From: a bacterium
GTDB taxonomy: Bacteria; Orphanbacterota; Orphanbacteria; Orphanbacterales; Orphanbacteraceae
Assembly: GCA_025782575.1 (NCBI GenBank)
Contig: JALGYY010000046.1
Coordinates: 248,001 to 312,000 of the forward strand
Direction of reading: 5' to 3'
DNA length: 64,000 nucleotides
The position numbers were made by a program, and so were the translations under genes. Numbering within the stretch: position 1 is the stretch's first letter; every line of letters begins with the position of its first letter. Below are positions 22,786-62,473 of the stretch, piece after piece. The notes under the pieces were generated by a model. That model was not told where the DNA came from, ran no database searches, and saw only the letters and a program-made list of their open reading frames with translations.

Positions 22786-22793
22786 GAAGAATC

Positions 22794-23804
22794 ATGTTGT
22801 CATTGCACAAAAGGGGGACCGGGAAAGTGAAATGGTTGAAGCTCTCCCTCGCCGTCGCACTGATCTTCTCTCTCCATGGAAATGCCCAGGCGACAGAGAT
22901 CTTCGCAAAAGTGGGAACCATCGGGGCCCAGTTCCTGAAAATGGGGGTTGGTGGCCGGGGGGTCGCCATGGGTGAGTCCTTTGTCGCGATCGCTGATGAT
23001 GCGTCGGCGTTGTATTGGAACCCGGCCGGAATCGCGCAACTGGAAGGGAAGAGCCACGTTATTCTGTCCCACACCTCCTGGCCGGCTGATATCGGCCACG
23101 AGTTTATCGGCTACGTATTCACCTACGGGGGCATTCCGGGCGTTCTCGGAGTGAGCATGAACATCCTTCAGATGGACCCGATGATTCGTACGACCGAGTA
23201 CCATCCGGATGGTATCAACATTGCCGGTTCGGAGGAACTCGAGCAGTTCGATGCGGGTGACCTCGCTCTCGGCTTCAGTTATGCTCAGTTCCTGACCGAT
23301 AAGTTTTCGTTCGGCGGAACGATCAAGTGGATCCACCAGGGTCTGGAGGACGAATTCGCTGAAGCTCTTAACTTTGATTTCGGCACTCTGTACAACACTG
23401 GTTTCCGGACCATTACGATCGGTATGGCCGTGCAGAGTATCGGGCAGGAAATGCGATTCATAGACCAGAACTTCTCACCTCCCACGATGTTCAAACTGGG
23501 TGTCGCCATGAGCGCATTCCAGGCCGAGCAGCACAGTGTACTCACCTCGGTCGAGTTCAATCATCCGAGTGACAACAAAGAGCGAGGCAACGTGGGGCTC
23601 GAATATCTCTACGCGCCGCTCGAGAGAGTAAGCCTCGCCCTTCGCGGCGGATACATGACCGGCCGTGATGTGCAGGACTATACTTTCGGTCTTGGTGTCC
23701 AGTTTCCGACCAGCGCCGCTGCTCTCGCCAATGTGAACTACTCGTTTTCCAATCTCGAGGCACTTGGCGGTTCGCATCAGGTGAGCGTGCAACTCCAGTA
23801 TTAG
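22794..23804 (+). CDS. PorV/PorQ-family outer-membrane beta-barrel protein
   Basis: A 336-residue barrel of the FadL-like PorV/PorQ group. ATG 22794 with AGGAAG upstream is preferred over a start inside the previous gene. The signal peptide ends at 'HGNAQA'. The mature N-terminus then shows the diagnostic PorV pattern 'GTIGAQFLKMGVGGRGVAMGESFVAIADDASALYWNPAGIA'. The protein ends in an aromatic residue (VQLQY), typical for Bam-inserted barrels. In Bacteroidota PorV is the T9SS shuttle that receives cargo from SprA and delivers it to the sortase. Its place next to a sorting-domain protein supports that role, but PorV paralogues without a T9SS role also exist. Confidence 0.85.
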   Translation: MLSLHKRGTGKVKWLKLSLAVALIFSLHGNAQATEIFAKVGTIGAQFLKMGVGGRGVAMGESFVAIADDASALYWNPAGIAQLEGKSHVILSHTSWPADIGHEFIGYVFTYGGIPGVLGVSMNILQMDPMIRTTEYHPDGINIAGSEELEQFDAGDLALGFSYAQFLTDKFSFGGTIKWIHQGLEDEFAEALNFDFGTLYNTGFRTITIGMAVQSIGQEMRFIDQNFSPPTMFKLGVAMSAFQAEQHSVLTSVEFNHPSDNKERGNVGLEYLYAPLERVSLALRGGYMTGRDVQDYTFGLGVQFPTSAAALANVNYSFSNLEALGGSHQVSVQLQY

Positions 23805-42526: not shown

Positions 42527-42542
42527 TGGCACAAACGTTGCT
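42527..42542 (+). promoter_or_regulatory. Sigma-54-type -24/-12 element before lpxL-lptC-lptB-rpoN
   Basis: TGGCAC at 42527-42532, then AAACG, then TTGCT at 42538-42542. The invariant GG (42528-42529) and GC (42540-42541) are 12 bp apart, as required for sigma-54. Only the base after TGGCAC differs from the usual TGGCACG-N4-TTGCW. It overlaps the TTGACA of the sigma-70 promoter by one base. Confidence 0.6.
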
Positions 42543-44798: not shown

Positions 44799-46247
44799 AT
44801 GGAAATGAGAGTCGGACTTCAGCTCCGCATGCTGCAGACACAAAAGCTCGTCATGACGCCGCAGTTGCAGCAGGCCTTGAAGTTTCTACAGATGCCTACT
44901 CTGGAACTGCAGCAGGTGTTGAAACAGGAGCTTCTTATGAATCCCGTGCTCGAAGAGGTTGACGACCTCATCGACGGCGAGGAAGAGGAACTGGATAAAC
45001 GGGAGGAAGAGCCAGCGGATCCGATGGAGAAGCCCGAACCGGATGAGAACCAATCCAATGATGAGCAGAAGAACGAGATCGACTGGGACGAATATTTCCA
45101 CTCACCACAGGATTACTCCCATCGTCAGCAATCCGAGGGAGGGCAGGACGAGACATACGAGCGTGTGCTCTCTACTACGGTCCGACTGTCGGAGCACCTG
45201 ATTTCCCAGCTTCGGATCGCGACGACCGATGATGAGACATTGCGGATCGGTGAGTTCCTGATCGGGAGCCTCGATGACAAGGGCTTTCTGACGTTGTCAT
45301 TTGAAGAAGTGGCGGAGAGTGTGCGGGCTCCCGTGAACCGGGTGCGGAAGACTCTCGAGCTGTTGCAGACGTTCGATCCTTCCGGCGTGGGAGCCCGCGA
45401 TCTCCGTGAATGTCTTCTTCTGCAGTTTCAGGCAGTAGAGGATTCGTCGAGCCTCGCCTACCGTGTGGTTCATGATCACTTCGATGAGTTCGTGCAGAAC
45501 AAATATAACGATATCGCTCGCAAACTGAAGACCACCGCCCAGGAGATTCAAGAGGCGACCGGCGTGATCGGGCAGCTCAATCCCAGGCCGGGAATGCTGT
45601 ATACGGACGAGGACCCCCGCTATATCACACCTGATCTGGTCGTCGACCGCGTCGATGACGAATACGTCGTTTACCTGAACGATCAGAACGTTCCGCGGCT
45701 TCGGGTATCGAAGACGTACCAGAAACTGATGACCAACGGCGACGGAACGAACTCCGAAACGAAAGAGTATGTAAAAAACAAGCTGAATGCGGCCAATCAG
45801 CTGATCAACACGATCGAGCGACGACGCAGGACCATGATTAAAGTCATGAAGTCGATCGTGGAGAACCAGGAGGAGTTCTTCGAAAGGGGAATTCGTTACC
45901 TGAAACCGATGACGCTTCAGCATGTGGCGGATCAGATCGGTATGCATGAGTCTACAGTAAGCAGGGTCACGTCGAATAAGTACGTGCAGACCCCCCGGGG
46001 CGTGTTCGAGCTCAAGTTCTTCTTCTCCTCGAGTATTCGATCCGATTCAGGTGAGGATGTCTCGGCCAAGCGCGTGAAAGATCGTGTCAAGGAACTGGTT
46101 GATTCCGAGGTCAAGACTAGCCCGCACAGTGATCAGAAGATTGTTGATATTCTCAGGAACGAGGGGCTTATCATTGCAAGGAGGACTGTAGCGAAGTATC
46201 GGGATCAAATGGGGATTCTCTCCGCCCGATACCGGAAGCAGTTCTGA
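44799..46247 (+). CDS. rpoN: RNA polymerase sigma-54 factor
   Basis: Alternative sigma factor of 482 residues. Region I is glutamine- and leucine-rich ('LQLRMLQTQKLVMTPQLQQALKFLQMPTLELQQ' area, residues 5-37), and region II is acidic. The core-binding domain follows. A helix-turn-helix is 'MTLQHVADQIGMHESTVSRV', and the RpoN box is 'IIARRTVAKYRDQ' near residue 465, essentially perfect. It needs an AAA+ activator, none of which is in this window. It is followed by hpf and hprK, as in the classic rpoN cluster. The upstream operon promoter has a sigma-54 site, so it may control itself. Confidence 0.98.
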   Translation: MEMRVGLQLRMLQTQKLVMTPQLQQALKFLQMPTLELQQVLKQELLMNPVLEEVDDLIDGEEEELDKREEEPADPMEKPEPDENQSNDEQKNEIDWDEYFHSPQDYSHRQQSEGGQDETYERVLSTTVRLSEHLISQLRIATTDDETLRIGEFLIGSLDDKGFLTLSFEEVAESVRAPVNRVRKTLELLQTFDPSGVGARDLRECLLLQFQAVEDSSSLAYRVVHDHFDEFVQNKYNDIARKLKTTAQEIQEATGVIGQLNPRPGMLYTDEDPRYITPDLVVDRVDDEYVVYLNDQNVPRLRVSKTYQKLMTNGDGTNSETKEYVKNKLNAANQLINTIERRRRTMIKVMKSIVENQEEFFERGIRYLKPMTLQHVADQIGMHESTVSRVTSNKYVQTPRGVFELKFFFSSSIRSDSGEDVSAKRVKDRVKELVDSEVKTSPHSDQKIVDILRNEGLIIARRTVAKYRDQMGILSARYRKQF

Positions 46248-46278: not shown

Positions 46279-46812
46279 ATGCAGCTCTCGATCACCGCGC
46301 GTCATTTCGACCTCACGGAAGGTCTAAAGGAACACACGGAGGAGCGAGTTCAGAAGCTCACCAAGTACGGACTCGATATCCTGGAAGCCCATGCGGTGTT
46401 GATGGTGGAAAAATACCGTCATATGGTGGAGGTCACGCTTCACTCCAAGGGCTTAAACGTTACCGGAAAGGCGGAGTCTGACGACATGTATACCTCTGTC
46501 GATCAGGCCGTAAACAAGGTGGAAGAGCAGATCCGTAGGCACAAGGATCGCATGAAGGGGCACAAATCGAAGGTCACGCGAAGGTCCGGTGTCCGGTTCG
46601 ATGTTTTGCGGACGAAAAGCGATAAGACCGGCGCCCAGATTGATGTCGTGCGCTCCGGCGAGTTAGAGATCCCGACGCTGACAGTGGAAGAGGCTATTCT
46701 CGAGTTGGAGAAAGGGGGCGACGATTACGTTCTCTTTACCAATCCCATAACTGACAAAGTTAACATCCTGAGCAAGAGGGAAGACGGAAACTACGGCGTC
46801 GTCGAGACCTGA
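46279..46812 (+). CDS. hpf: Ribosome hibernation-promoting factor, long form
   Basis: A 177-residue long-type HPF. The N-terminal S30AE domain ('LSITARHFDLTEGLKEHTEERVQKL' start, residues 3-100) binds the decoding centre. The C-terminal domain ('VRSGELEIPTLTVEEAILELEKGGDDYVLFTNP' area) mediates dimerisation of 70S ribosomes into 100S particles. AAAGGGGAC precedes the ATG. Position behind rpoN is conserved in many bacteria. Confidence 0.95.
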   Translation: MQLSITARHFDLTEGLKEHTEERVQKLTKYGLDILEAHAVLMVEKYRHMVEVTLHSKGLNVTGKAESDDMYTSVDQAVNKVEEQIRRHKDRMKGHKSKVTRRSGVRFDVLRTKSDKTGAQIDVVRSGELEIPTLTVEEAILELEKGGDDYVLFTNPITDKVNILSKREDGNYGVVET

Positions 46813-46842
46813 TCTGCGCCGGCCCGGTACCAGGAGAAGAGA

Positions 46843-47784
46843 ATGAAGAGCCTATCGGTTCGGGAACTCTACGAAAGCAAGAGGGAGCTCTTTCAATTCG
46901 AAGTGCTGACAGGCTCCATCGATTCCGAACGCCCGATTACGGTGAGCGATGTTCATAGACCGGGTCTGGCTCTCGCCGGCTTTACGAAGAACTTTCTGGC
47001 TGAACGGATTCAGATCCTCGGCGAAACGGAAATGCTCTTCCTGGAGACGCTGGGGAAAGAAGAACGGCGAAAAGCGATTGATCGTCTCTTTCAGGAAAAA
47101 GTACCTTGTGTCATTGTCGCTAAAGGTCTCGAATATGATGCATACCTGTCGACGAAGGCGAAGGAAGTCGGTGTTCCGATTTTGCGGACGCCCCAATCGA
47201 CGACGCCGTTCATTCATCGCCTGGCTGAATTTCTTGAAGAGGCTTTTGCGCCGAGAACAACGCTACATGGAACGCTCGTCGACGTGTATGGTGCCGGTCT
47301 TCTGATTACGGGAAAAAGCGGCATCGGGAAAAGCGAATGCGCACTGGACCTCGTAGAGAGAGGGCACCGTCTCGTTACTGACGACATGGTGATCGTCACA
47401 AGAAAGCACAATCTGCTCTACGGCGAGGCAAGCGAACAATTGAAGTACCACATGGAGATCCGGGGGATCGGGATCGTCGACGTGCGCAGCATGTTCGGCG
47501 TTCGTGCGATAGGGAAGACAAAGCGAATCGACGTGGAGGTTAGACTTCGCGAATGGAGCGCCAGCGTGCAGTATGATCGCCTCGGCCTCGAGGATCGGAT
47601 GACGACGATTCTGGGATTGAAGGTACCGGTCGTCACGATTCCGATCATTCCCGGCAAGAACATCACGGTTCTGGCAGAGGTAGTCGCCATGAACCATCAA
47701 CTCAAGATTCAGGGAATCCATTCAGTTGATCTTCTGGATAAATCCTTGATCGAAGCGATGCGAAAAAAATCCGCTCCCGTATGA
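46843..47784 (+). CDS. hprK: HPr kinase/phosphorylase
   Basis: Bifunctional enzyme that phosphorylates and dephosphorylates Ser46 of HPr, 313 residues. The N-terminal regulatory domain is followed by the P-loop GKSGIGKSE (residues about 157-165), 'LVERGHRLVTDDMVI', and the HprK/P signature 'MEIRGIGIVDVRSMFGVRAI' with downstream 'IDVEVRLREW'. It sits between hpf and ptsH; target serine and catalytic motifs are both conserved, so the pair should be functional. AGGAGA precedes the ATG. Confidence 0.97.
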   Translation: MKSLSVRELYESKRELFQFEVLTGSIDSERPITVSDVHRPGLALAGFTKNFLAERIQILGETEMLFLETLGKEERRKAIDRLFQEKVPCVIVAKGLEYDAYLSTKAKEVGVPILRTPQSTTPFIHRLAEFLEEAFAPRTTLHGTLVDVYGAGLLITGKSGIGKSECALDLVERGHRLVTDDMVIVTRKHNLLYGEASEQLKYHMEIRGIGIVDVRSMFGVRAIGKTKRIDVEVRLREWSASVQYDRLGLEDRMTTILGLKVPVVTIPIIPGKNITVLAEVVAMNHQLKIQGIHSVDLLDKSLIEAMRKKSAPV

Positions 47785-47839
47785 TCGGAGAATAGCAGCG
47801 GTCGCGCCAGAATGGTCGAACCACGAGACACAGGTGGGC

Positions 47840-48118
47840 ATGTTGGAACGAATCGTTCGAGTTAGAAACAGCAAGGGGATTCATATCAGACCGGGGCAGG
47901 AGATTGTCCAGACTGCCGAGCAGTTTCTGGCTGATGTATTCCTGCAGAACGGTTCGAAGCGGATCAATGCGAAAAGCATGCTCGGCATCATGGGACTCGT
48001 GGCGGGAGAGGGTACGGATCTCAAGATCATTACGGACGGCCCGGACGAGGCCGAAGCACTACAGGCTCTCGCCGACCTTATCGAGAGCGGCTTCGGTGAG
48101 GAGCTTGAAGAAGAGTGA
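47840..48118 (+). CDS. ptsH: Phosphocarrier protein HPr
   Basis: A 92-residue HPr. ATG 47840 is preferred over GTG 47834 because it places the phospho-histidine at H15 (G-I-H-I-R-P) and the regulatory serine at S46 (NAKSMLGIMGL), the standard numbering. The residue after H15 is Ile instead of the usual Ala. EI phosphorylates H15; HprK acts on S46. It overlaps ptsI by 4 bp (GTGA). No EII permease is nearby, so a regulatory role is likely. Confidence 0.95.
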   Translation: MLERIVRVRNSKGIHIRPGQEIVQTAEQFLADVFLQNGSKRINAKSMLGIMGLVAGEGTDLKIITDGPDEAEALQALADLIESGFGEELEEE

Positions 48119-49896
48119 ATCTTCCCCCTGATCGTGATTCGAGGGGAGGGGGGGGCGGGCATTCTCTCCTGCATGGTATCCCCGTGTCTCCCGGCATTGC
48201 TGTAGGTGAAGTCTTCGTTCTCGGGGCCGAAGAGTTCGAGATCGATAACCGCCCGATTGAAGCCTCCGAAACCGACACTGAACAGAAACGGTTCTTCGAC
48301 GCACTCGACCGCACTCGCCACGAGATCGAGAAAATCCGCACCCGCTATCGATCTGTAATCGGTGAAGAACTCGTTCGTGTGTTCGACGCTCAGATCCTGA
48401 TTCTGCAGGATCCCACTCTGCTTGACGGAACGACTCATCGTATTCAGAAGGAGCTGCAGAGTGCCACCGCCGCCTTTCAGGCGATCATTTCGGAAGCGAT
48501 CGTCAATCTCTCCCGTGTGGAAAATGACTACCTGCGTGATCGCGTGGAAGATCTGAAAGACGTCAGGAGAAGGGTGTTGAGACATCTTTCCGGCCGTGGC
48601 CGGAAATCACTATCCCACCTGAAGAAGAACGTCATCCTCGTCGCAGAGGACTTGACGCCGTCAGAGACTGTTCAGATTCCGAGAAGCAAGGTCAAGGGGT
48701 TCGTGACGAGGCAAGGGGGGGCCACGTCTCATACGGCGATCATGGCCCGTTCGCTTCAGATTCCGGCGGTGGTCGGGGTTGAAGGATTGCTTGATCATGT
48801 TCATCATCGCGATATTGTCGTGATCGACGGGAGTGAGGGCCAGATACTGGTGAATCCCGCACCGGACGTCTTGAAGAAGGCGCGCAAACAGCAGCGCCGC
48901 TACAAGGAACTCTCTAAGGAGCGCAAGCGCCTTCACGACCTGCCGTCCAGAACTCGAGATGGCTTGGATATCAAGCTGCTCGCCAATGTCGAATTCCCTG
49001 AGGAGATTCCGCTGGCCCTTGAAAACCGGGCGGCCGGAATCGGCCTGTTTCGCACTGAATTTTTATTCTTTCGGGAATCCGATCTATCGGACGAGGATGC
49101 CCAGACGTCTCTTTACCGTAAAATACTGAAGCGCGTTTCTCCCGAAGTCGTGGTGTTCCGCACGCTCGACGTCGGCGGTGACAAAGTGCTCGATCCCATG
49201 AGCGACGTACTCGAGCCGAACCCTATGCTCGGCTGGCGAGGAATCCGGATCTCCCTCGAATTGCGACCTCTCTTTCGAAAACAGTTACGCGCCCTTCTGC
49301 GAGCATCCGTAGACGGAAACCTCCGAATCCTTTTCCCCATGATCACGACGATTGAGGAGATTCGTGCTTCCAAGAGGATTCTCGCCGAGGTAAGGGAGGA
49401 GTTGGAACTCGGGGGACATCACGTTCCGAAAAACTATGAGGTGGGCGTCATGATCGAGACCCCGGCCGCCGTGAGTGTGGCTGATCACATCGCCCGGGAA
49501 GTGGATTTCATGAGCATCGGGACGAACGATTTGATCCAGTACAGCCTCGCGGTCGATCGAGACAATATGAAAATCGCCCATCTGTTCGATCCGTTTCACC
49601 CGGCAGTGGTTCGTATGGTCCACTCCGTACTCGAGGTCGGCCGCGAGTCGGATACACCTGTCAGTATCTGTGGAGAAATGGCGGGCGAACCGCTGGCGGC
49701 GCTCCTACTCATCGGTCTTGGAGCCAGGGAACTATCAGTTCACCCCTATTTGATTCCGGAACTGAAGAGGCTGATTACACGTATGAGTTCAGTAGACGCT
49801 CACCGTCTGGCCGAGCAGGTACTCGAGCTGCCGACCGGCCACGACATCCACGAGACAATGGAAGAATATCTGCACATGCTGGAGAGCGAGGAGTAA
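48115..49896 (+). CDS. ptsI: PTS enzyme I (phosphoenolpyruvate-protein phosphotransferase)
   Basis: Starts the PEP phosphorelay to HPr, 593 residues. The N-terminal HPr-binding and swivel domains carry the active-site histidine H206 in 'QGGATSHTAIMARS'. The C-terminal PEP-binding barrel has 'GIGLFRTEFLFF', 'FRTLDVGGDKVLDPM', 'NPMLGWRGIRISLE', 'GVMIETPAAV', 'FMSIGTNDLIQYSLAVDRDN' and the cysteine in 'VSICGEMAGEPL'. No GAF domain precedes it, so it is EI rather than EI-Ntr. GTG start overlapping ptsH. Confidence 0.97.
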   Translation: MNLPPDRDSRGGGGGHSLLHGIPVSPGIAVGEVFVLGAEEFEIDNRPIEASETDTEQKRFFDALDRTRHEIEKIRTRYRSVIGEELVRVFDAQILILQDPTLLDGTTHRIQKELQSATAAFQAIISEAIVNLSRVENDYLRDRVEDLKDVRRRVLRHLSGRGRKSLSHLKKNVILVAEDLTPSETVQIPRSKVKGFVTRQGGATSHTAIMARSLQIPAVVGVEGLLDHVHHRDIVVIDGSEGQILVNPAPDVLKKARKQQRRYKELSKERKRLHDLPSRTRDGLDIKLLANVEFPEEIPLALENRAAGIGLFRTEFLFFRESDLSDEDAQTSLYRKILKRVSPEVVVFRTLDVGGDKVLDPMSDVLEPNPMLGWRGIRISLELRPLFRKQLRALLRASVDGNLRILFPMITTIEEIRASKRILAEVREELELGGHHVPKNYEVGVMIETPAAVSVADHIAREVDFMSIGTNDLIQYSLAVDRDNMKIAHLFDPFHPAVVRMVHSVLEVGRESDTPVSICGEMAGEPLAALLLIGLGARELSVHPYLIPELKRLITRMSSVDAHRLAEQVLELPTGHDIHETMEEYLHMLESEE

Positions 49897-53536: not shown

Positions 53537-54616
53537 CTATCGCGCCAGTCGGCGGAAGAGGAGGAGGCCGATGCCGAGAAAGATGATATTCCCGAGCCAG
53601 GCGGCGGCAAGAGGATGAAGGACTTCGTTGTAACCGAGCGCCTGACCTACACGGATGGTGATGTAGAAGATAAAGCAGATCAGAAGCGCGACCGCAATCC
53701 CGACGGCATTTCCACTCTTTCTCAGTAGTGCGCCCAGGGGGCTTCCGAATATGACGATAACGAAGCTGGTGAAAGGGAAAGAGAGTTTCATTTGTAAATC
53801 GACCCTCTCTTTCATCACTTCTCCACCGCTCATGTCCGCCTTCCTGATGAACCGGGAGAGCTCCCGATAGCTCATCTGGCTCGAGCTTTTCTGCCGCTTG
53901 GCGAGATCGTCGGGTGATTCGACAATGTCGGGCATCACGCGCTCCAGGAACTGGATCTCTTCCAGAAGACGGCTCTCGTCGAATCGTCTGAAGTAACCAT
54001 CTATGAAGGTCCACTCTCCATCTTTCCAGGTCGCCTTTTTCGCATCGATTCGCTCACGTAGCATGAAATCAGAAACTCGGGAGACCACTACATTTCTCAT
54101 GGTCTCCTTCTGCGTATCCAGTCGGCCGATCCAGTAGATCCAGTCGTTCTCGCCGAGGTAGCTCACATTGGTCCGAATGTTCTTTACCCGGCCACGGCCC
54201 GGTTTGATCGTATCGTTTTCGAGCATCTTCACCTGTTCGGATGCGAACGGCCCCAGGGTCTCTCCCGTGGCCATGGCGAGCAGGCTCACCCCGAGAGCCG
54301 CCGCAAGTATGGGAAGAAGGGTTCGTTTGACGCTGATACCCGCGGACTGGATGGCGACGAATTCGTTGTTTCGCGCATGAGAGCCGAGGGCGAAGAGACA
54401 GGCGAGTAGCATACCTACCGGCAGGAGGAGAAGTACGATCTCAGGAGTTCGCAAGGCATAGTATTTTCCGATGATAAGCAGGGAGACATCGTGATCGAGG
54501 AAGTCGTCGATCTTCTCGAAGAGATCTAGAATGATGAACACGGCAAGAAAAGCCAATATGGCGAAGCCGAGGGTGGTCAAATAGCTTTTTAAGACGTATC
54601 GATCGAGAATTCGCAT
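53537..54616 (-). CDS. lptG: LPS export permease LptG
   Basis: Inner-membrane permease of the YjgP/YjgQ family, 359 residues. The start at 54616 (minus strand) overlaps the lptF stop by one base, and the N-terminus 'MRILDRYVLKSYLTTLGFAI' is family-typical. Three N-terminal TM helices ('AILAFLAVFIILDLFEKI', 'PEIVLLLLPVGMLLACLFALG', 'LLPILAAALGVSLLAMATG') are followed by a periplasmic jellyroll and three C-terminal TM helices ending 'LLLFRRLAR'. 'NNEFVAIQSAGIS' is the conserved coupling-helix region that docks LptB. It forms LptB2FG with lptF and lptB. Confidence 0.9.
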   Translation of the reverse strand: MRILDRYVLKSYLTTLGFAILAFLAVFIILDLFEKIDDFLDHDVSLLIIGKYYALRTPEIVLLLLPVGMLLACLFALGSHARNNEFVAIQSAGISVKRTLLPILAAALGVSLLAMATGETLGPFASEQVKMLENDTIKPGRGRVKNIRTNVSYLGENDWIYWIGRLDTQKETMRNVVVSRVSDFMLRERIDAKKATWKDGEWTFIDGYFRRFDESRLLEEIQFLERVMPDIVESPDDLAKRQKSSSQMSYRELSRFIRKADMSGGEVMKERVDLQMKLSFPFTSFVIVIFGSPLGALLRKSGNAVGIAVALLICFIFYITIRVGQALGYNEVLHPLAAAWLGNIIFLGIGLLLFRRLAR

Positions 54617-55980
54617 CAGGGGGATTCTTCCTCGCTCCGCCTGCGGCCGAACCGGCGGAACCGGATGAACGTGGTTTCCCTCGTCGTCTGCCAGACGAGA
54701 TAGAGGCCGAGGCCCCCGATCAATACGTTGGCCGCCCACATGGATACGGCCGGCTCAATATGGCCCCGATCGGCGAGCTTTTCACCCCCGGTCAGGAAAA
54801 GATAGTAGATAACGAAGAGGATAATGCTGAATCCGACGCCTACCCCCGCTCCGCCGCGATGAGCCTTCACACCGAGAGGGGTGCCGATAAGCACGAAAAC
54901 CAGACAGGCCACCGGAAGTGCATACTTCTTGTGAACTTCCACCATGTACCGGTTGACCTGAAGTTCCTTGTCCCGGATGCGCCGCGTAATCGAGCTCAGG
55001 TCGCTGCTGTTCGTGCTGATGTCGCGCGCGTAGGTTCGAAGAGTTATCTGTTCTTTGGGTGCCCGTTCCCCTTCCCGACGGCGTGGTCCCTCCCAATCGA
55101 GAATACCGAGTCGATCGCTCACCCCTTTGGTTGCATCGTTGAACAGTTCCTTTCGGAATTTCTCAATCTCTTTCCGGTACCCGGCGATGCGCTCCAGCAT
55201 GTCAGCCGAGCTCAGTTCACGGTCACCCCGGTTCTTCTTCTCCGATCGTACGAGTTCCGATCCGATATCCTCGATACGGATCGTGTGTGTATAGAAGGAC
55301 ATCCGGTGATACCGGGAGGGGTTCTTTTCGTTCACACCGTGGATCTCGCCGTCCCGGAGATGGAGAGTCAGCGAGGCGCCGCCGTCAGTGAATTCCATCG
55401 ATCCGTAGCGAGCGACGATTGTCTCACTCTCCTTCCCGGGATTCTTCTTCTGGATCGTAACCGACTCCAACGTGCCGTCTTTCTCATTCATTTTGCCGAC
55501 ACGAATGGTGTACCCCTGAAAATCGTTAAACGCACCGGCTTTAAGGGCAAGCGCCGGCCGTTTCCGGTGAATGTCGATAATGAGTCCCGCGAGGCGATGA
55601 TTGGAATCCGGCAGGATTTCATTGTTGAAGTAAATAAGGCCCCCCACTATCAGAACGGCTACGGTAACGGGAGGAAGAAGGATCTGCCATGTACTCACGC
55701 CGGCGGCTTTCATGGCTGTGATCTCGTTGTCCGCCGAGAGTCTGCCGAACGCCATCAGGGATGCCACAAGGACCGCCATCGGGACGATAAGGGCGACCAT
55801 CCAGCCGAGGCTCAGCATGAAAACTTCGAGCACCACGCCGAGGGGGACACCCTTACCCAGGAATAGATCGATATACCGGATCAGAAGATCCATGATCAGA
55901 ATGAAAGTGATTACGAAGACCCCGAAAAAGAAGGGCCCTACGTGCTGACGGATGATATAGAGGCTCAGGATTCGTGACAT
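54616..55980 (-). CDS. lptF: LPS export permease LptF
   Basis: Partner permease of LptG, about 454 residues from ATG 55980 on the minus strand (GGAG 7 nt upstream; an ATG six codons earlier lacks it). TM segments include 'GPFFFGVFVITFILIMDLL', 'LGWMVALIVPMAVLVASLMAFG' and 'ILLPPVTVAVLIVGGLIYF', with 'DNEITAMKAAGVS' as the LptB-contact motif. A long periplasmic part contains a polar insertion ('EKKNRGDRELSS...EKFRKELFNDAT') of about 100 residues that most short LptF proteins lack. C-terminal helices follow. lptG starts on its stop codon. Confidence 0.9.
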   Translation of the reverse strand: MSRILSLYIIRQHVGPFFFGVFVITFILIMDLLIRYIDLFLGKGVPLGVVLEVFMLSLGWMVALIVPMAVLVASLMAFGRLSADNEITAMKAAGVSTWQILLPPVTVAVLIVGGLIYFNNEILPDSNHRLAGLIIDIHRKRPALALKAGAFNDFQGYTIRVGKMNEKDGTLESVTIQKKNPGKESETIVARYGSMEFTDGGASLTLHLRDGEIHGVNEKNPSRYHRMSFYTHTIRIEDIGSELVRSEKKNRGDRELSSADMLERIAGYRKEIEKFRKELFNDATKGVSDRLGILDWEGPRRREGERAPKEQITLRTYARDISTNSSDLSSITRRIRDKELQVNRYMVEVHKKYALPVACLVFVLIGTPLGVKAHRGGAGVGVGFSIILFVIYYLFLTGGEKLADRGHIEPAVSMWAANVLIGGLGLYLVWQTTRETTFIRFRRFGRRRSEEESP

Positions 55981-55998
55981 GATTTCGCTCCGGCGCAT

Positions 55999-56223
55999 GA
56001 CTTTAGCTGATATACCCCGCAGCAGTCCACTCGGATTCCCCGTCTCCGGTTGAGGACAGTTCGTACCCGCGTGGGTACTGGATCGGCGGGCGAGTTGGTT
56101 TCATTTAAGTACTCCATGCCGGCACCTGCTAGGGAAAGACTGTAACTTGCATTCTGACAAGTCGTTAGTGATCCCAACCCTCTTTCGATCGAACCGTCGG
56201 CCTTGGTTGAGCTTTCTCCCTGA
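55999..56223. other. Intergenic region between divergent lptF and sprA, with palindromes
   Basis: A gap of about 360 bp in total; no gene is visible. Two perfect palindromic elements occur: GTACCC-GCGT-GGGTAC at 56063-56078 and TTCGATCGAA at 56184-56193. No convincing -35/-10 for lptF was found on the minus strand. The sprA-proximal part holds the sigma-54-like site listed next. Confidence 0.5.
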
Positions 56224-56249
56224 TGGCATGTAGATTGCGTTCCTATAAT
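56224..56249 (+). promoter_or_regulatory. Sigma-54-type promoter candidate upstream of sprA
   Basis: TGGCAT (56224-56229), GTAGA, TTGCG (56235-56239): the GG and GC doublets are 12 bp apart, and TGGCAnG-N4-TTGC matches the consensus at all key positions. A TATAAT at 56244-56249 follows, but no -35 stands 16-18 bp before it, so sigma-54 explains the site better. A leader of about 140 nt with a GAGGAG...CTCCTC hairpin precedes the start codon. Confidence 0.5.
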
Positions 56250-56386
56250 TGGTTTCCAGTGAAATGTAGAGGCATCTCACCGGAATCCAGAAAAGAGATT
56301 GAAAGAATCACCTCTCCCCCATTGAGGAGCTCCTGAGCCTGGACTCCTCCGGTGGTTGATTGTACGTACCTTTGAGGACTAAAAAC

Positions 56387-59300
56387 TTGGGATGGCTCAT
56401 TCGCAGCCCCCTAGTGGGCCAGTGCATTCTCATGGCCCTGTCCGTGCTCATTGGTACACCTGCGCCCGCCATCAGCGACGGTGTGGGAGGCCCTGTTGCC
56501 GTTGTCCGCGATGCAACCTCCCGCAATCATCCCCCTTTCCTGTCATACGTGGGGACCGCCCCCTATCGAGAAGAGCTCGCCCAGCGTCTCAAGTGGCCGG
56601 ATGGAGAGTTCCGAACGGATCTGACGATCGATCTTGAGAACCAGACCGTCACGGTCGTCCGTTACTGGGATGATGTCCCGCTGACATGGCCATGGGTCGT
56701 CTCTCTGACAGGTTATCGGGAGCAGATCAAGATCTACTCCCATGCCGCCGTCTTCCGGGACAAGAACCGCCGTAGCAAAGCTCTCGCCCAAGGAGAAACC
56801 GCCGCCGGTGCATTCAACATTGATCTGCCGGTCCGATTCCCCAAGACTCTCTCCCGGATCATAGGCCAGGGAGCCAACATCAAAGTAACCGGAAGCGAGT
56901 CGATTACCTTTTCGGGGGAAACCCAGTTTTTTATTAAAGAGCGGGACAATGAAAGCGGCGGCCAGCGCCGCTTCCCGGAACTCGACATGCGACAACAGCT
57001 CCAAGTCAACCTGACAGGAACGATCGGTGAGAAGGTCAAGGTCGAGATGCAGCATAACTCTGAATCCCAGGTTCCGCTCGAAAACAGGATCAAACTTCGG
57101 TACGAAGGCTTTGAGGACGAGATCATCCAGAGAATCGAGGTCGGGAACACCAGCCTCGCCCTGCCGGGCAACCAGTTCGTAAGTCTCAGCTCTCAGCAGC
57201 AAGGGCTCTTCGGAGTGAAGATGATCGGCCAGGCGGGCAAACTCGATTTTACGGCGGTATTCAGTCAGCAGCAGGGGCAGACGGACAGCGAGCAATTCGT
57301 CGGTGGTTCGAGCCAGATCGAAAACACGATTCAGGATTTCGAGTACATACGAGGGCGGTACTTCGTCGTCAATAACTATGACGCCGTAGCGGATATTCGT
57401 GTATTTGTTGATGACAATAACGGAAACAATACGACCGGTGCTCAGCTTCCGGGAAACGGATACCTCTTCAACTCCCAGAATGTGCGTGTCGAAAACGTAC
57501 CGGGGATCCAAGGGAGCTACGATGAGCTGATCGAGTGGGAGGACTATATCATTCAGCGGGAGATCGGCCTGCTGGTGATGAACACCCGACTTCGTAACAA
57601 CGATGCGCTCGCTATCTGGTACACCGCCGGCAGTGGGACGGCGATCGATACGGTCGGCTTCCTGCCCGACCCCGTTCCTGTGGAGTTTGCTGCGGGAGAC
57701 AGCGTCGAATTGAAGGTGATCCGGCCGCGGACCGAAGAATACAGGCATCCGAACGATCCGATCAGCCCGAATCTTGCTTACTCGCCGACGTGGTTTTATC
57801 AGCTCCGCAATGTATACGATCTTCGAGGGCGCAACATTCAGCCTGACGGTCTCGATATCCGGATCTATCAGAAAGCGGCCGGTGCCGGAGAACGGACTGA
57901 TTTCCAGGGTAATCTTTCATTCTTCGAAATCATGGGACTCGATCTGATCGGCCAGACTCCGAGCGAACCTCCCGACGGTCTACTCGACGACATCTACCGT
58001 GGGTCGGAGATCGATCCGAACCGGCTTTTCCCCAATGCTTCGGACGATTCTTTCTATGTGAACAGGGGCCTTCCTCTCGGCAACCTGCCTTATCGCCTGA
58101 ACAACATGCTGGACGCCACGAATGGGGTCCTCTTTTTCCCCGATCTCTATCCCTTTGATCCCGCATACCGGCATGTCCTCCAAGGAAGCGACGAATTTCC
58201 TGATCTCGTAGATCGAAACCCATCAATTTATCTACAAAATGATTCCAGAAATGCCCAGAACCTTTATGAAATCGTCGTTAGGTTTCGGGCCTCCGCAGCC
58301 TCATTCTCCCTCGGCCGTTCCAATATTCTGGAAGGGAGCGAGGTGGTCCGACTGAACGGTCGTACTCTGGCACGGGGCCGGGACTACCGAATCGTCTACG
58401 AGATCGGTCAGATCGAATTTCTGGGAGAATCGAAAGATGAGGCGTTGGAAGAAAACGCCGATGTTTCGATCGACTTCGAATACGCCCCGTTTCTCGCGCA
58501 GTCTCAGCGGAGCCTTGCCGGAGCGGCGTTCACTTACAATCTCTCTGACGCGACAAAGCTCTCATCCATCCTGATGTTCAAAGGGAAGCGGACCCCCTTC
58601 CGGCGGCCTCGATTAGGGCAGGAGCCCTCCCGAATTTTCGTGAGCGGATTTTCTCTCGCCACGCAGAAAGAACCTGGCTTCCTGACCGATTGGGCGGACG
58701 CGATTCCCGGCATGGATGCCCGTGAACGATCCAACCTGACGATCAATCTGGAAGGGGCTGCCACATTCCCGAATCCGAACACCAAGAACGCGATCTATCT
58801 GGACGACATGGAAGGGACTGAGGAGGTCTCTTCATTCGGGATCACACGACGGCAGTGGGATCTGGCCTCGATTCCGAAGCGGGCCGACGGAGAAAGCGAG
58901 GTAAGAGACAGTCTTCGGTTCCGAGCCGTGGAGTGGTACAACCCAAAAAACTCCACCAGCAGGGGGGACTTGAATCCTGACCTGACGGAGGACGAAAAGC
59001 TCAAGTTCATTCCCGTGCTGGAAGTGGCCGTGAATGGTGGGACGATCGAATCGGGGGCGCCTGATGACAGCGCGTGGGGGGGAGTCATGCGGCTCGTCTC
59101 CAAGAGTGGTCTCGCTTTGAAAGAGAGGAAGTTCATCGAAGTCTGGGTGAATGACTTCGGTACCGGGCAGGGGAAGATGCATATTGATATGGGGCTTCTC
59201 GGAGAGGACCAGATGTGGTCGGTCGGGCCGCCGAACGACTCTCTTGATACGGAAGACAAGAACAGGGACGGTGTGCTGGACGACTCGGGAACTAACGATC

Positions 59301-62300
59301 CGGATGCCCTGAACGGAGATGAAGATACCGGGCTGGACGGCATTTTCGATACCCAAGGGTTGCCCGAGCCGATCGACGACAACTGGGCGTTTGACGAGGC
59401 GGTGCAAAATGACTTTTCCCATATCAACGGTACGGAAGATAACGGCTTTCTCGATACGGAAGACCTGAATGGAAACGGCCTACTCGATGAGGAGCGGAGT
59501 TTCTTCCGCTACACGGTCGACTTCTCGACCAATGAGAATGTCGGGGCTCGCGGAAACACGACGGATCCGGGAAAGAACTGGCTGCTCTATCGCATTCCGC
59601 TCGCTAAAGGAGAAGGGCGCTCGATCGGTGCCTCGGCCTCGCCCAGCCTCGACCAGGGAGTGAAGTACGTCCGCATCTGGTTCAGCGATGTGGGGGCTAC
59701 CGAGGCCCGCTTCCAGATCGCCTCGATCGAAATCACGGGAAACCGCTGGCTCGAAGGGGGAATCCAGAATGCGGACGGCGCGATCATACTTCCGGACAGC
59801 GCCGAGTTCAGTAATGACGAGCTGTTTGCGGCAGGGGTGATCAACAACAAGGACGACAAGTCCTACGATCCCCCGCCCGTAGAGATTCAGGAGGAGCGTG
59901 GCATTCCGGAACGGGAGCAATCTCTCTTTATTCAGTATGAGAATCTGAAGTCGGGTCATACGGGGACCGTTTTCAGGCGCCTCTTCGAGGACGAGGATTA
60001 TACTCGCTACGAGAAGCTGGAGTTCTGGGCGCGGCGGGCGAACCGGAGCCTGCCGACGAGCCCGGAGCAGGTGACCCGGCCTGTTCCGGTTCTCTTCTTT
60101 CGATTCGGCGGCGACTCGCTCAACTTTTACGAGGTGCGGGATACGCTGGACGCGCTCCCCGGCTCGATCGGTGGCCGTCCACCCTGGGATCGGATAGAAG
60201 TCGATCTCGCGGAGATCACCCGGGTCAAACTGGAGGAGCCGGACAGCATTTCCCTCTACGGCGTCCGCCTGCCTGTCCGGGAGGGTCAGTTCGAGGGGAG
60301 GTCGATTCGGGCGGTCGGGAACCCGAGTATGACAAAAGTGAGAAGGCTCTCATTCGGCGTGACCAACCCGCTTGTCCCCGGGGGACAGGCGGCAACCGAC
60401 ACGATCTGGGTGGATGATCTCAGACTGACCGGGGTCAAGGGAGATGTGGGCTATGCGGCGCGTGTAGGTTTCAATTTCAAAGTTTCAGATCTCATGGGTG
60501 TTCGAGGAGAGTTCAGGAAAGTGGGCAAGGAGTTTCGCCGCGTCACGGGCGGCGGAACCGGCGGGAGAATCACGGAAGAGCATCCTCGAAGCGGAAGCGA
60601 CGACACGGAACTTACGCTGAACGGTAATGTGAATCTCACCAAATTTCTTCAAGGGGCGGGTGTCAAGCTGCCAGTGGACTGGGGGTTCTCTAAAAGCGTC
60701 AGAAAACCGGAGCTCAAGAACGCGTCTGATATTCTTCTCGATGACCCTGAGAGTGAAAAGACCGTAAAGAACGGCAGAAACGTGGGGGTGTCGCTCGGCC
60801 GTACACGAAAATCGCCGAATCCGTTGCTGTACTACACGACTGACGCGATGAATCTTCGAATGTCCGGCGCCCGGAACGAAAACACGACTCCGGTTTCAGC
60901 CGACACGAGCTGGTCACTCAACATGGACTGGTCCTATAACTATAGTCCACGATTCAAAAGTGACCTTCCCGTTTTCCGGAACTGGGTGGTTAATCCTCTA
61001 CCGAAAAGCGCGACTCTGACTGCAAGCCGGAAAAGGGGGGAGAGCAGGCGTTTTGACATTCGGACCGGGCGAACGACCATCTCGGAGACCAGAGACTCCC
61101 GGTCGGTTCTCTCGTTCGCCATGGCGCCGGTCACCGGCGGGGGATTTACTTCTGATTTCAACTTCAGCTCCACCAGGGATCATCGATTCGGCGAACCCCT
61201 TCCCGGTTTCAGCCACGTCAACCGTGGTTTCGAAACAAATCGCAATCACGAATCCCGGCTCTCCTACACGCCCGGTTTCAAGAAGTATCTATCGTGGCTG
61301 AATCCCAGGCTCTCGTATAACACGAAGTTTACGGACAACCATCCGGCCAATACCAATCTCACTCTGAGTGACAATACCCAGATTCGAAGTCATCAGATCA
61401 ACAACTCCAATAACTCACGCATGGATTTCAGCGTGGGCATTTCGAAGCTATTCAAAGCACTGCCCGGTAAGCCCGCCCCCGTGCCGGAAGACTCGGCGAA
61501 AGGAAGCGGGGGGAATCCGATGTCTGTTGTGTGGTTCATAAAGGGACTCGGTTCCCGTATCGGCGACGTGTCCGGCTCGATCTCCCTGAATCGGTCCTCG
61601 AGCTTCGCCCAGCTCACCGACCGGCCGAGCCTCGCCTACCAGTTCGGGCTCGAGTCGGAAATCGACTCGCTTCTCCAAGGGCGGAGTACGAACCAGCAAC
61701 CGCAATCCAATCGAACGAGGGATGTTCAGACACGGGCCTCATCGTCTATCGGGATGCCGGCGGACATGAACCTCAGATGGTCATACAACCGCTCGACGCG
61801 GCGGAGCGAACAGAACAGCAATGCAACCGAATCGCAATCGACTACCTGGCCCGATCTGCAGTATTCGTGGTCGGGGTGGCACAAAATCGGCAAGCTGAAG
61901 GACGTCCTGAAGAACGGAAATCTCGATATCGGCTATAATCAGAGGAAAGATCTTGCGGGGAGAACGCTTGACGATCTGAACAGTGAACGGATATCCAAGA
62001 GCTGGGCCCCGCTCGCGGAGATTGACGCCGAATGGCAGAACGGACTGCAAAGCCGGGTCAGTGTCGATCGAACGGAGGACATCAACCGGAACCTGCGTGG
62101 GGGACAGTCTGAGAACCGGTCCAAATCGCTCGGAGTAAGCGGGTCTCTCAGCTATCGGAAGACCTCACGAAAAAAAATCAACATTCCCATACTCGGGAAG
62201 GGTAGGAAGGGGGGGACCTTCACCGCGACGACAACGTTTCGATTGAGCCTCAATTTCTCGAGTAACAAAGAGGAGCGTTTCGATCCGGGCGCACCGCCCA

Positions 62301-62473
62301 AACTCGAAGGTCACACCAGAGATTTCAGTATTGCACCATCCGTGTCGTGGTCCTGGCTCCAGAATCTGACAGGCAATCTGGAACTCCGTTTCGGGGAGAG
62401 GAGGAATCTGAAGAATGAAAACCGAAGTACTCGATCGATCGGCGCATCAATCTCCGCGCTCTTCAAGTTCTAG
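56387..62473 (+). CDS. sprA: SprA, T9SS outer-membrane translocon
   Basis: About 2,028 residues, the size of SprA/Sov, the giant 36-stranded barrel through which T9SS cargo crosses the outer membrane. TTG 56387 is preferred (GAGGA 8 nt upstream); TTG 56360 is an alternative. A hydrophobic signal ('CILMALSVLIGTPAPA') leads to periplasmic and barrel segments. Family signatures: 'ISFSGETQFFIKERDNESGG'-type text near residue 180, 'QVNLTGTIGEKVKVEMQHNS', 'NTIQDFEYIRGRYFVV' and 'YLDDMEGTEEVSSFGITRRQW'. A DxNxDG-rich stretch at about 955-1035 ('TEDKNRDGVLDDSG', 'DTEDLNGNGLLDEE') precedes 'FRYTVDFS', as in SprA. The end is 'IGASISALFKF', with a terminal Phe for Bam insertion. Its 3' end overlaps the M28 gene by 59 bp. 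Confidence 0.92.
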   Translation: MGWLIRSPLVGQCILMALSVLIGTPAPAISDGVGGPVAVVRDATSRNHPPFLSYVGTAPYREELAQRLKWPDGEFRTDLTIDLENQTVTVVRYWDDVPLTWPWVVSLTGYREQIKIYSHAAVFRDKNRRSKALAQGETAAGAFNIDLPVRFPKTLSRIIGQGANIKVTGSESITFSGETQFFIKERDNESGGQRRFPELDMRQQLQVNLTGTIGEKVKVEMQHNSESQVPLENRIKLRYEGFEDEIIQRIEVGNTSLALPGNQFVSLSSQQQGLFGVKMIGQAGKLDFTAVFSQQQGQTDSEQFVGGSSQIENTIQDFEYIRGRYFVVNNYDAVADIRVFVDDNNGNNTTGAQLPGNGYLFNSQNVRVENVPGIQGSYDELIEWEDYIIQREIGLLVMNTRLRNNDALAIWYTAGSGTAIDTVGFLPDPVPVEFAAGDSVELKVIRPRTEEYRHPNDPISPNLAYSPTWFYQLRNVYDLRGRNIQPDGLDIRIYQKAAGAGERTDFQGNLSFFEIMGLDLIGQTPSEPPDGLLDDIYRGSEIDPNRLFPNASDDSFYVNRGLPLGNLPYRLNNMLDATNGVLFFPDLYPFDPAYRHVLQGSDEFPDLVDRNPSIYLQNDSRNAQNLYEIVVRFRASAASFSLGRSNILEGSEVVRLNGRTLARGRDYRIVYEIGQIEFLGESKDEALEENADVSIDFEYAPFLAQSQRSLAGAAFTYNLSDATKLSSILMFKGKRTPFRRPRLGQEPSRIFVSGFSLATQKEPGFLTDWADAIPGMDARERSNLTINLEGAATFPNPNTKNAIYLDDMEGTEEVSSFGITRRQWDLASIPKRADGESEVRDSLRFRAVEWYNPKNSTSRGDLNPDLTEDEKLKFIPVLEVAVNGGTIESGAPDDSAWGGVMRLVSKSGLALKERKFIEVWVNDFGTGQGKMHIDMGLLGEDQMWSVGPPNDSLDTEDKNRDGVLDDSGTNDPDALNGDEDTGLDGIFDTQGLPEPIDDNWAFDEAVQNDFSHINGTEDNGFLDTEDLNGNGLLDEERSFFRYTVDFSTNENVGARGNTTDPGKNWLLYRIPLAKGEGRSIGASASPSLDQGVKYVRIWFSDVGATEARFQIASIEITGNRWLEGGIQNADGAIILPDSAEFSNDELFAAGVINNKDDKSYDPPPVEIQEERGIPEREQSLFIQYENLKSGHTGTVFRRLFEDEDYTRYEKLEFWARRANRSLPTSPEQVTRPVPVLFFRFGGDSLNFYEVRDTLDALPGSIGGRPPWDRIEVDLAEITRVKLEEPDSISLYGVRLPVREGQFEGRSIRAVGNPSMTKVRRLSFGVTNPLVPGGQAATDTIWVDDLRLTGVKGDVGYAARVGFNFKVSDLMGVRGEFRKVGKEFRRVTGGGTGGRITEEHPRSGSDDTELTLNGNVNLTKFLQGAGVKLPVDWGFSKSVRKPELKNASDILLDDPESEKTVKNGRNVGVSLGRTRKSPNPLLYYTTDAMNLRMSGARNENTTPVSADTSWSLNMDWSYNYSPRFKSDLPVFRNWVVNPLPKSATLTASRKRGESRRFDIRTGRTTISETRDSRSVLSFAMAPVTGGGFTSDFNFSSTRDHRFGEPLPGFSHVNRGFETNRNHESRLSYTPGFKKYLSWLNPRLSYNTKFTDNHPANTNLTLSDNTQIRSHQINNSNNSRMDFSVGISKLFKALPGKPAPVPEDSAKGSGGNPMSVVWFIKGLGSRIGDVSGSISLNRSSSFAQLTDRPSLAYQFGLESEIDSLLQGRSTNQQPQSNRTRDVQTRASSSIGMPADMNLRWSYNRSTRRSEQNSNATESQSTTWPDLQYSWSGWHKIGKLKDVLKNGNLDIGYNQRKDLAGRTLDDLNSERISKSWAPLAEIDAEWQNGLQSRVSVDRTEDINRNLRGGQSENRSKSLGVSGSLSYRKTSRKKINIPILGKGRKGGTFTATTTFRLSLNFSSNKEERFDPGAPPKLEGHTRDFSIAPSVSWSWLQNLTGNLELRFGERRNLKNENRSTRSIGASISALFKF

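What the first reader, a model, noticed from the sequence alone, without database searches (positions are those of the whole stretch)
56063..56249. sprA may be driven by sigma-54, with an upstream palindrome as activator site
TGGCATG-TAGA-TTGCG at 56224-56239 has the GG/GC spacing and both core elements of a sigma-54 promoter. About 146 bp upstream is GTACCC-GCGT-GGGTAC, and at 56184 a second palindrome TTCGATCGAA. Activators of sigma-54 (bEBPs) normally bind inverted repeats 80-200 bp upstream. An alternative TATAAT at 56244 has no -35. I am not aware of sigma-54 control of a T9SS translocon gene; T9SS regulation described in Bacteroidota uses PorXY and the ECF factor SigP. Control by sigma-54 is inference.
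Basis: partly seen in the sequence, partly recalled or inferred. Interest (0 to 1): 0.75.

Follow-up and report, generated by a model that had tools for sequence, protein, structure and literature searches.

The report
Conserved sigma-54 promoter before sprA
The gene for the outer-membrane gate of the type IX secretion system in this uncultured bacterium carries a textbook sigma-54 promoter that is kept in every relative where the region can be read, while the DNA around it has been scrambled, so this secretion gate is very probably switched on by an activator, together with pili and flagella, rather than by the ordinary housekeeping sigma factor.

Summary
TGGCATGTAGATTGC lies at 56224-56238, between divergent lptF and sprA, with all 11 informative -24/-12 positions.

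All six upstream regions in the phylum that could be read (five genera, this genome included) carry an 11/11 site before sprA. Only 10-20 such sites exist per genome. Chance for the other four genera is about 2e-13. In the alignment the core positions are almost the only conserved columns; no sigma-70 promoter is conserved.

In a survey of 80 other SprA-bearing genomes, one more had an 11/11 site, and all five readable members of its family, in a second phylum, have one. The genome encodes an intact RpoN (44799-46247) and about 27 sigma-54 activators. Other strict sites in the phylum precede pilin, flagellar, GTPase and lipoprotein genes: a surface regulon.

The activator-site part is only weakly supported. 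GTACCC-N4-GGGTAC is recognisable in three genera, doubtful in a fourth and lost in a fifth by leave-one-out test; TTCGATCGAA is not conserved.

Precedent: sigma-54 drives the sprB gliding operon in Flavobacterium psychrophilum. Sigma-54 control of sprA itself was not found in the papers searched. Transcription is untested.

The parts
56224..56238 (+). sigma-54 -24/-12 promoter core TGGCATG-TAGA-TTGC of sprA (GG at 56225-56226, GC at 56237-56238; predicted +1 near 56250)
   Evidence: Sequence; 11/11 site before sprA in all readable members of the phylum and invariant in the alignment
56387..62473 (+). sprA, T9SS outer-membrane translocon; likely start TTG 56387 behind GAGGA 56374-56378 (ORF opens earlier, first TTG 56360)
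   Evidence: TIGR04189 equivalog, 533.7 bits; start codon by inspection
56063..56078 (.). palindrome GTACCCGCGTGGGTAC, candidate activator site (unproven)
   Evidence: Sequence; partial conservation
56184..56193 (.). palindrome TTCGATCGAA, probably chance
   Evidence: Not found upstream of sprA in the other four genera
56244..56249 (+). TATAAT, probably chance: no adequate -35, not conserved
   Evidence: absent from aligned relatives
54616..55998 (-). lptF-like LPS export permease, divergent from sprA; this arrangement is kept in relatives
   Evidence: LptF/LptG hits; relatives by inspection
44799..46247 (+). rpoN, sigma-54, with activator-interacting, core-binding and DNA-binding domains and RpoN box ARRTVAKYRD
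42527..42541 (+). second strict sigma-54-like site, before lpxL in the lpxL-lptC-lptB-rpoN cluster, abutting a conserved TTGACA

Best explanation
sprA in this lineage is transcribed from a sigma-54 promoter. RpoN holoenzyme binds TGGCAYG-N4-TTGC, stays closed, and needs ATP-driven remodelling by one of the genome's roughly 27 enhancer-binding proteins, bound upstream. sprA is thereby wired into a sigma-54 surface programme that also includes type IV pilin, a flagellar rod gene, a flagellar-type sigma factor, a Ras-like GTPase, a GGDEF response regulator and lipoproteins. Shown here: the promoter core, its conservation, the presence of RpoN and activators, and shared strict sites before those genes. 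Inferred: RpoN binding, activator dependence, the start site near 56250, and which activator acts. Whether the palindrome at 56063 is the activator site is open (I put it near 0.3).
For: Six of six readable upstream regions in the phylum (five genera) have an 11/11 site. Strict sites number only 10-20 per genome, giving about 6e-4 to 8e-4 per 350 bp and a joint chance of about 2e-13 for the four genera not used to pose the idea. In the ungapped alignment of five genera ten core positions are invariant and the eleventh is C/T, against three invariant columns among the other 185 examined. In a second phylum five of five readable members of the G140 family carry an 11/11 site before sprA, where differing reading frames across genomes show DNA rather than protein conservation. 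The reversed-sequence control gave no hit of 10 or 11 in the survey. RpoN is intact with its RpoN box. The same strict motif precedes orthologous pilin and flagellar genes in several genera, known sigma-54 target types. No sigma-70 or Bacteroidota-type promoter is conserved in the same stretch.
Against: No transcript ends or rpoN mutant data exist. Among 80 surveyed genomes outside the phylum only one has an 11/11 site, so this is not the general rule for sprA. The second phylum was not checked for rpoN. No cognate activator is identified. A minor sigma-70 promoter cannot be excluded.
Confidence: 0.88

Rival explanations
1. sprA is driven by a housekeeping sigma-70 promoter using TATAAT at 56244, and the sigma-54-like core is coincidental.
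For: TATAAT is a perfect -10 hexamer; best bipartite match 9 of 12 in G000.
Against: Its -35 is CTGATG with spacing 18; shuffles reach this score in 9% of trials; the best matches in three other genera are 6 of 12. The -24/-12 core is conserved everywhere instead.
Confidence: 0.04
2. The promoter is sigma-54 dependent and the palindrome at 56063 is its enhancer, bound by one dedicated activator (a stronger form of the best explanation).
For: A related 16-bp element can be lined up in all six sprA upstreams, ending 98-145 bp before the TGG; leave-one-out ranks G000 above all 94 other sigma-54 upstreams and G001 and G004 above all but three.
Against: Leave-one-out picks another instance in G003 and fails in G002 (13 of 94 do as well). 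It lies about 65 bp from the lptF start and could serve lptF. Similar elements at a histidine-kinase promoter lie just behind secF, and in G003 the element is part of a terminator-like hairpin (by inspection).
Confidence: 0.3
3. Dual control: the sigma-54 promoter adds to a weak constitutive promoter further upstream or within the leader.
For: Envelope genes often have more than one promoter; the lpxL promoter in the same window has a sigma-54-like core abutting a conserved TTGACA with a TA-rich -10 about 17 bp on.
Against: No conserved sigma-70 element was seen before sprA from 60 bp upstream to 150 bp downstream of the site.
Confidence: 0.2
4. The conserved core is the binding site of another regulator, or part of a small RNA or leader structure, not a promoter.
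For: Conservation alone does not prove promoter activity.
Against: Exactly the sigma-54-informative positions are kept and the spacer is free to vary between genera; the same core stands before pilin and flagellar genes.
Confidence: 0.05

Closest known systems
Sigma-54 (SM4) promoter of the remFG-sprCDBF gliding operon in Flavobacterium psychrophilum (PMC9723704)
   Same: A -24/-12 promoter controlling a gene set tied to T9SS and gliding; that operon encodes the T9SS cargo SprB and SprF, needed to secrete it; mapped and mutagenised there.
   Different: That operon encodes adhesin and partners, not the translocon SprA; a second alternative-sigma motif (SM5) is also present there; Bacteroidota rather than this phylum.
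PorXY-SigP and ECF-sigma control of T9SS genes in Porphyromonas gingivalis and Flavobacterium
   Same: Alternative-sigma regulation of T9SS components (PMC7712824 abstract; PMC9723704).
   Different: ECF sigma factors, not sigma-54; no enhancer-dependent step.
Sigma-54 promoters of type IV pilin and flagellar genes
   Same: Same core, same RpoN; such genes carry strict sites in the same genomes.
   Different: Target is a secretion translocon; activator unknown.
Sigma-54 as controller of the bacterial exterior (PMC3162934, 2011)
   Same: sprA and the LPS gene lpxL fit that theme.
   Different: That paper's text does not mention Bacteroidetes (no hit); I saw no mention of T9SS in the passages read.

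Membership tests
sigma-54 dependent promoter | -24 TGGC and -12 TTGC elements with GG-N10-GC spacing | tested here: met
   56224-56238, 11/11
sigma-54 dependent promoter | Core conserved before orthologous genes above background | tested here: met
   6/6 readable in phylum; 5/5 readable in the G140 family of a second phylum
sigma-54 dependent promoter | RpoN with DNA-binding domain and RpoN box encoded in the genome | tested here: met
   Window 44799-46247
sigma-54 dependent promoter | Enhancer-binding activators encoded in the genome | tested here: met
   About 27 full PF00158 domains
sigma-54 dependent promoter | Upstream activator binding site | tested here: inconclusive
   Palindrome partly conserved, fails leave-one-out in one genus
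sigma-54 dependent promoter | Transcription lost without RpoN or without activator ATPase | not testable with these tools
   Needs experiment
Type IX secretion system | SprA/Sov translocon | tested here: met
   TIGR04189, 533.7 bits, cut-off 200
Type IX secretion system | PorV-family partner | tested here: met
   11-15 family matches per genome
Type IX secretion system | GldK/L/M/N motor, sortase PorU, C-terminal sorting domains | not tested

The most novel reading that the evidence does not exclude
In at least two FCB-like phyla the type IX translocon is an enhancer-dependent gene: a dedicated activator, reading an envelope or surface signal, opens a sigma-54 promoter before sprA and so couples protein secretion to pili, flagella and LPS export, either as an ancestral trait lost in most lineages or as one gained twice.
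Probability: 0.35. Interest if true: 0.7.

Novelty: new variant of a known kind. Interest (0 to 1): 0.58.

Why it matters
T9SS regulation is known mainly from PorXY and ECF sigma factors in Bacteroidota. A conserved enhancer-dependent promoter before the translocon gene would mean that in other phyla secretion through SprA can be fully off until a signal arrives. It also gives a ready list of candidate co-regulated surface genes and a way to find the cognate activator.

Tried and rejected
The G031 10/11 site is inside lptF coding sequence (by inspection): rejected. The G110 10/11 site could not be backed: its phylum holds one other genome, G246, which has no comparable site. Sharing of the palindrome with the promoter of a histidine-kinase operon behind secDF looked exciting, but in G003 the element is part of a terminator-like hairpin, in G004/G006 it lies just behind secF, and it is weak in the others: not used as proof. 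A genome-wide palindrome search gave mostly chance hits; among strict matches only sprA and that locus had an 11/11 site downstream. PorV loci showed no 11/11 sites in the 30 checked. SprA as single query found nothing in named genomes; an alignment did. One Pfam call failed on coordinates.

Full report
What was claimed. It said the idea would fail if the core were not conserved in orthologues while a TATAAT plus -35 was.

The observation. The core is at 56224-56238 exactly as stated. It lies between lptF-like (54616-55998, minus strand) and sprA (start probably TTG 56387, behind GAGGA). The gene is SprA by an equivalog model at 534 bits against a cut-off of 200. The window has two matches to TGGCAYNNNNNTTGC where 0.16 are expected. 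In the whole genome the stricter TGGCAYRNNNNTTGC occurs 20 times against 5 for the reversed control.

Relatives. The window's phylum holds seven genomes in five genera, all of one family. Close named records are MAGs labelled Gemmatimonadetes or Candidatus Eisenbacteria. In six of the seven the sprA upstream region is readable, and every one has an 11/11 core on the sprA strand: TGGCATGTAGATTGC, TGGCACGACGTTTGC, TGGCACGTCCCTTGC (twice, one genus), TGGCATGGGGCTTGC, TGGCACGCCCCTTGC. In the seventh the contig ends first. An alignment shows little else conserved between the divergent genes apart from a block nearer lptF. Aligned without gaps on the site, ten core positions are invariant and one is C/T, against three invariant columns among the other 185 examined. 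With 13-17 strict sites per genome, the chance of one in 350 bp on the right strand is 6e-4 to 8e-4, and about 2e-13 jointly for the four genera not used to raise the idea. This treats genera as independent; shared ancestry alone does not explain survival of the core while the surroundings have diverged.

Rival promoter. The best sigma-70 match in G000 is 9 of 12 with a poor -35. The other genera give 8, 6, 6 and 6. The Bacteroidota-type promoter is at shuffle level.

How wide. An alignment of the SprA N-terminal region was searched in 386 genomes across the domain, and 130 matched. Upstream DNA of 90 was read. Outside the phylum 80 were usable and one, G140, has an 11/11 core; the reversed-sequence control never reached 10. 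All eight genomes held for G140's phylum have SprA. The five readable members of its family all carry TGGCAYGGAANTTGC before sprA, lying in different reading frames of the extended ORF, so it is the DNA that is kept. G277 of another family there has none. So the site is fixed in two small groups of different phyla and rare elsewhere.

Machinery. RpoN is complete, with activator-interacting, core-binding and DNA-binding domains and the RpoN box ARRTVAKYRD. About 27 full activator ATPase domains are encoded, none in the window.

Regulon. Sorting 102 strict sites by the gene that follows gives orthologous groups seen in several genera: type IV pilin, a flagellar rod gene, a sigma-70-family flagellar-type sigma factor, a response regulator with GGDEF domain, a Ras-like GTPase, a LytB/IspH-like protein (Pfam), lpxL, several lipoproteins or exported proteins, a large putative histidine kinase behind secDF, and sprA. 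Known sigma-54 target types among these act as positive controls.

The palindromes. TTCGATCGAA is found in G000 only. GTACCC-N4-GGGTAC has counterparts GTCCCG-GGGTAC, GTCGCC-GGATAC, GTCGCC-GGGTAC and GTTCTC-GAGTAC ending 98-145 bp before the core. These instances were chosen by eye, so a leave-one-out test was run: G000 beats all 94 other sigma-54 upstreams, G001 and G004 all but three, G003 finds a different instance, and G002 fails. It is a candidate activator site with odds I put near 0.3; it could also serve lptF.

Literature. In Flavobacterium psychrophilum a -24/-12 promoter before remFG-sprCDBF was mapped and tested by mutagenesis, and T9SS components such as PorU and GldN had an ECF-type motif (PMC9723704). 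The word sprA does not occur in that paper's text. Searches for sigma-54 or rpoN with T9SS or sprA found no report of sigma-54 control of sprA in the held library, which lacks most subscription papers. The theme of sigma-54 as controller of the bacterial exterior is established (PMC3162934).

Verdict. Sigma-54 promoter before sprA: strongly supported by comparative evidence, untested by experiment. Palindrome as enhancer: open. Kind: a new variant of a known kind.

Noticed in passing
window 42527-42541 and downstream to 46247: A second strict sigma-54-like core stands before lpxL in the lpxL-lptC-lptB-rpoN cluster, conserved in all five genera and always directly followed by TTGACA with a TA-rich hexamer about 17 bp on. 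It may be a nested double promoter through which RpoN affects its own operon.
   Followed up: partly
window 22677-23804; places listed: PorV-family outer-membrane proteins are multiplied: 11-15 matches per genome in all seven genomes, one in this window followed by a GWxTD-domain protein.
   Followed up: partly
L026, L151, L138, L143, L168, L177: Strict sigma-54 sites precede a LytB/IspH-like gene in six genomes, an unexpected target.
   Followed up: no
L231 2517-7420 (minus-strand reading) and orthologues: In all seven genomes a strict sigma-54 site follows secDF and precedes a roughly 1600-aa putative histidine kinase, in three genomes with a small exported protein in between.
   Followed up: partly
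L260, L326, L329, L330, L331: A second, unnamed phylum (G140) has the same type of site before sprA, with a fixed GGAA spanning the end of the -24 element and the start of the spacer.
   Followed up: partly
window 46279-49896: rpoN is followed by a ribosome hibernation (S30AE) protein, HPr kinase and a PEP-utilising PTS enzyme I, an rpoN-hpf-PTS arrangement.
   Followed up: no
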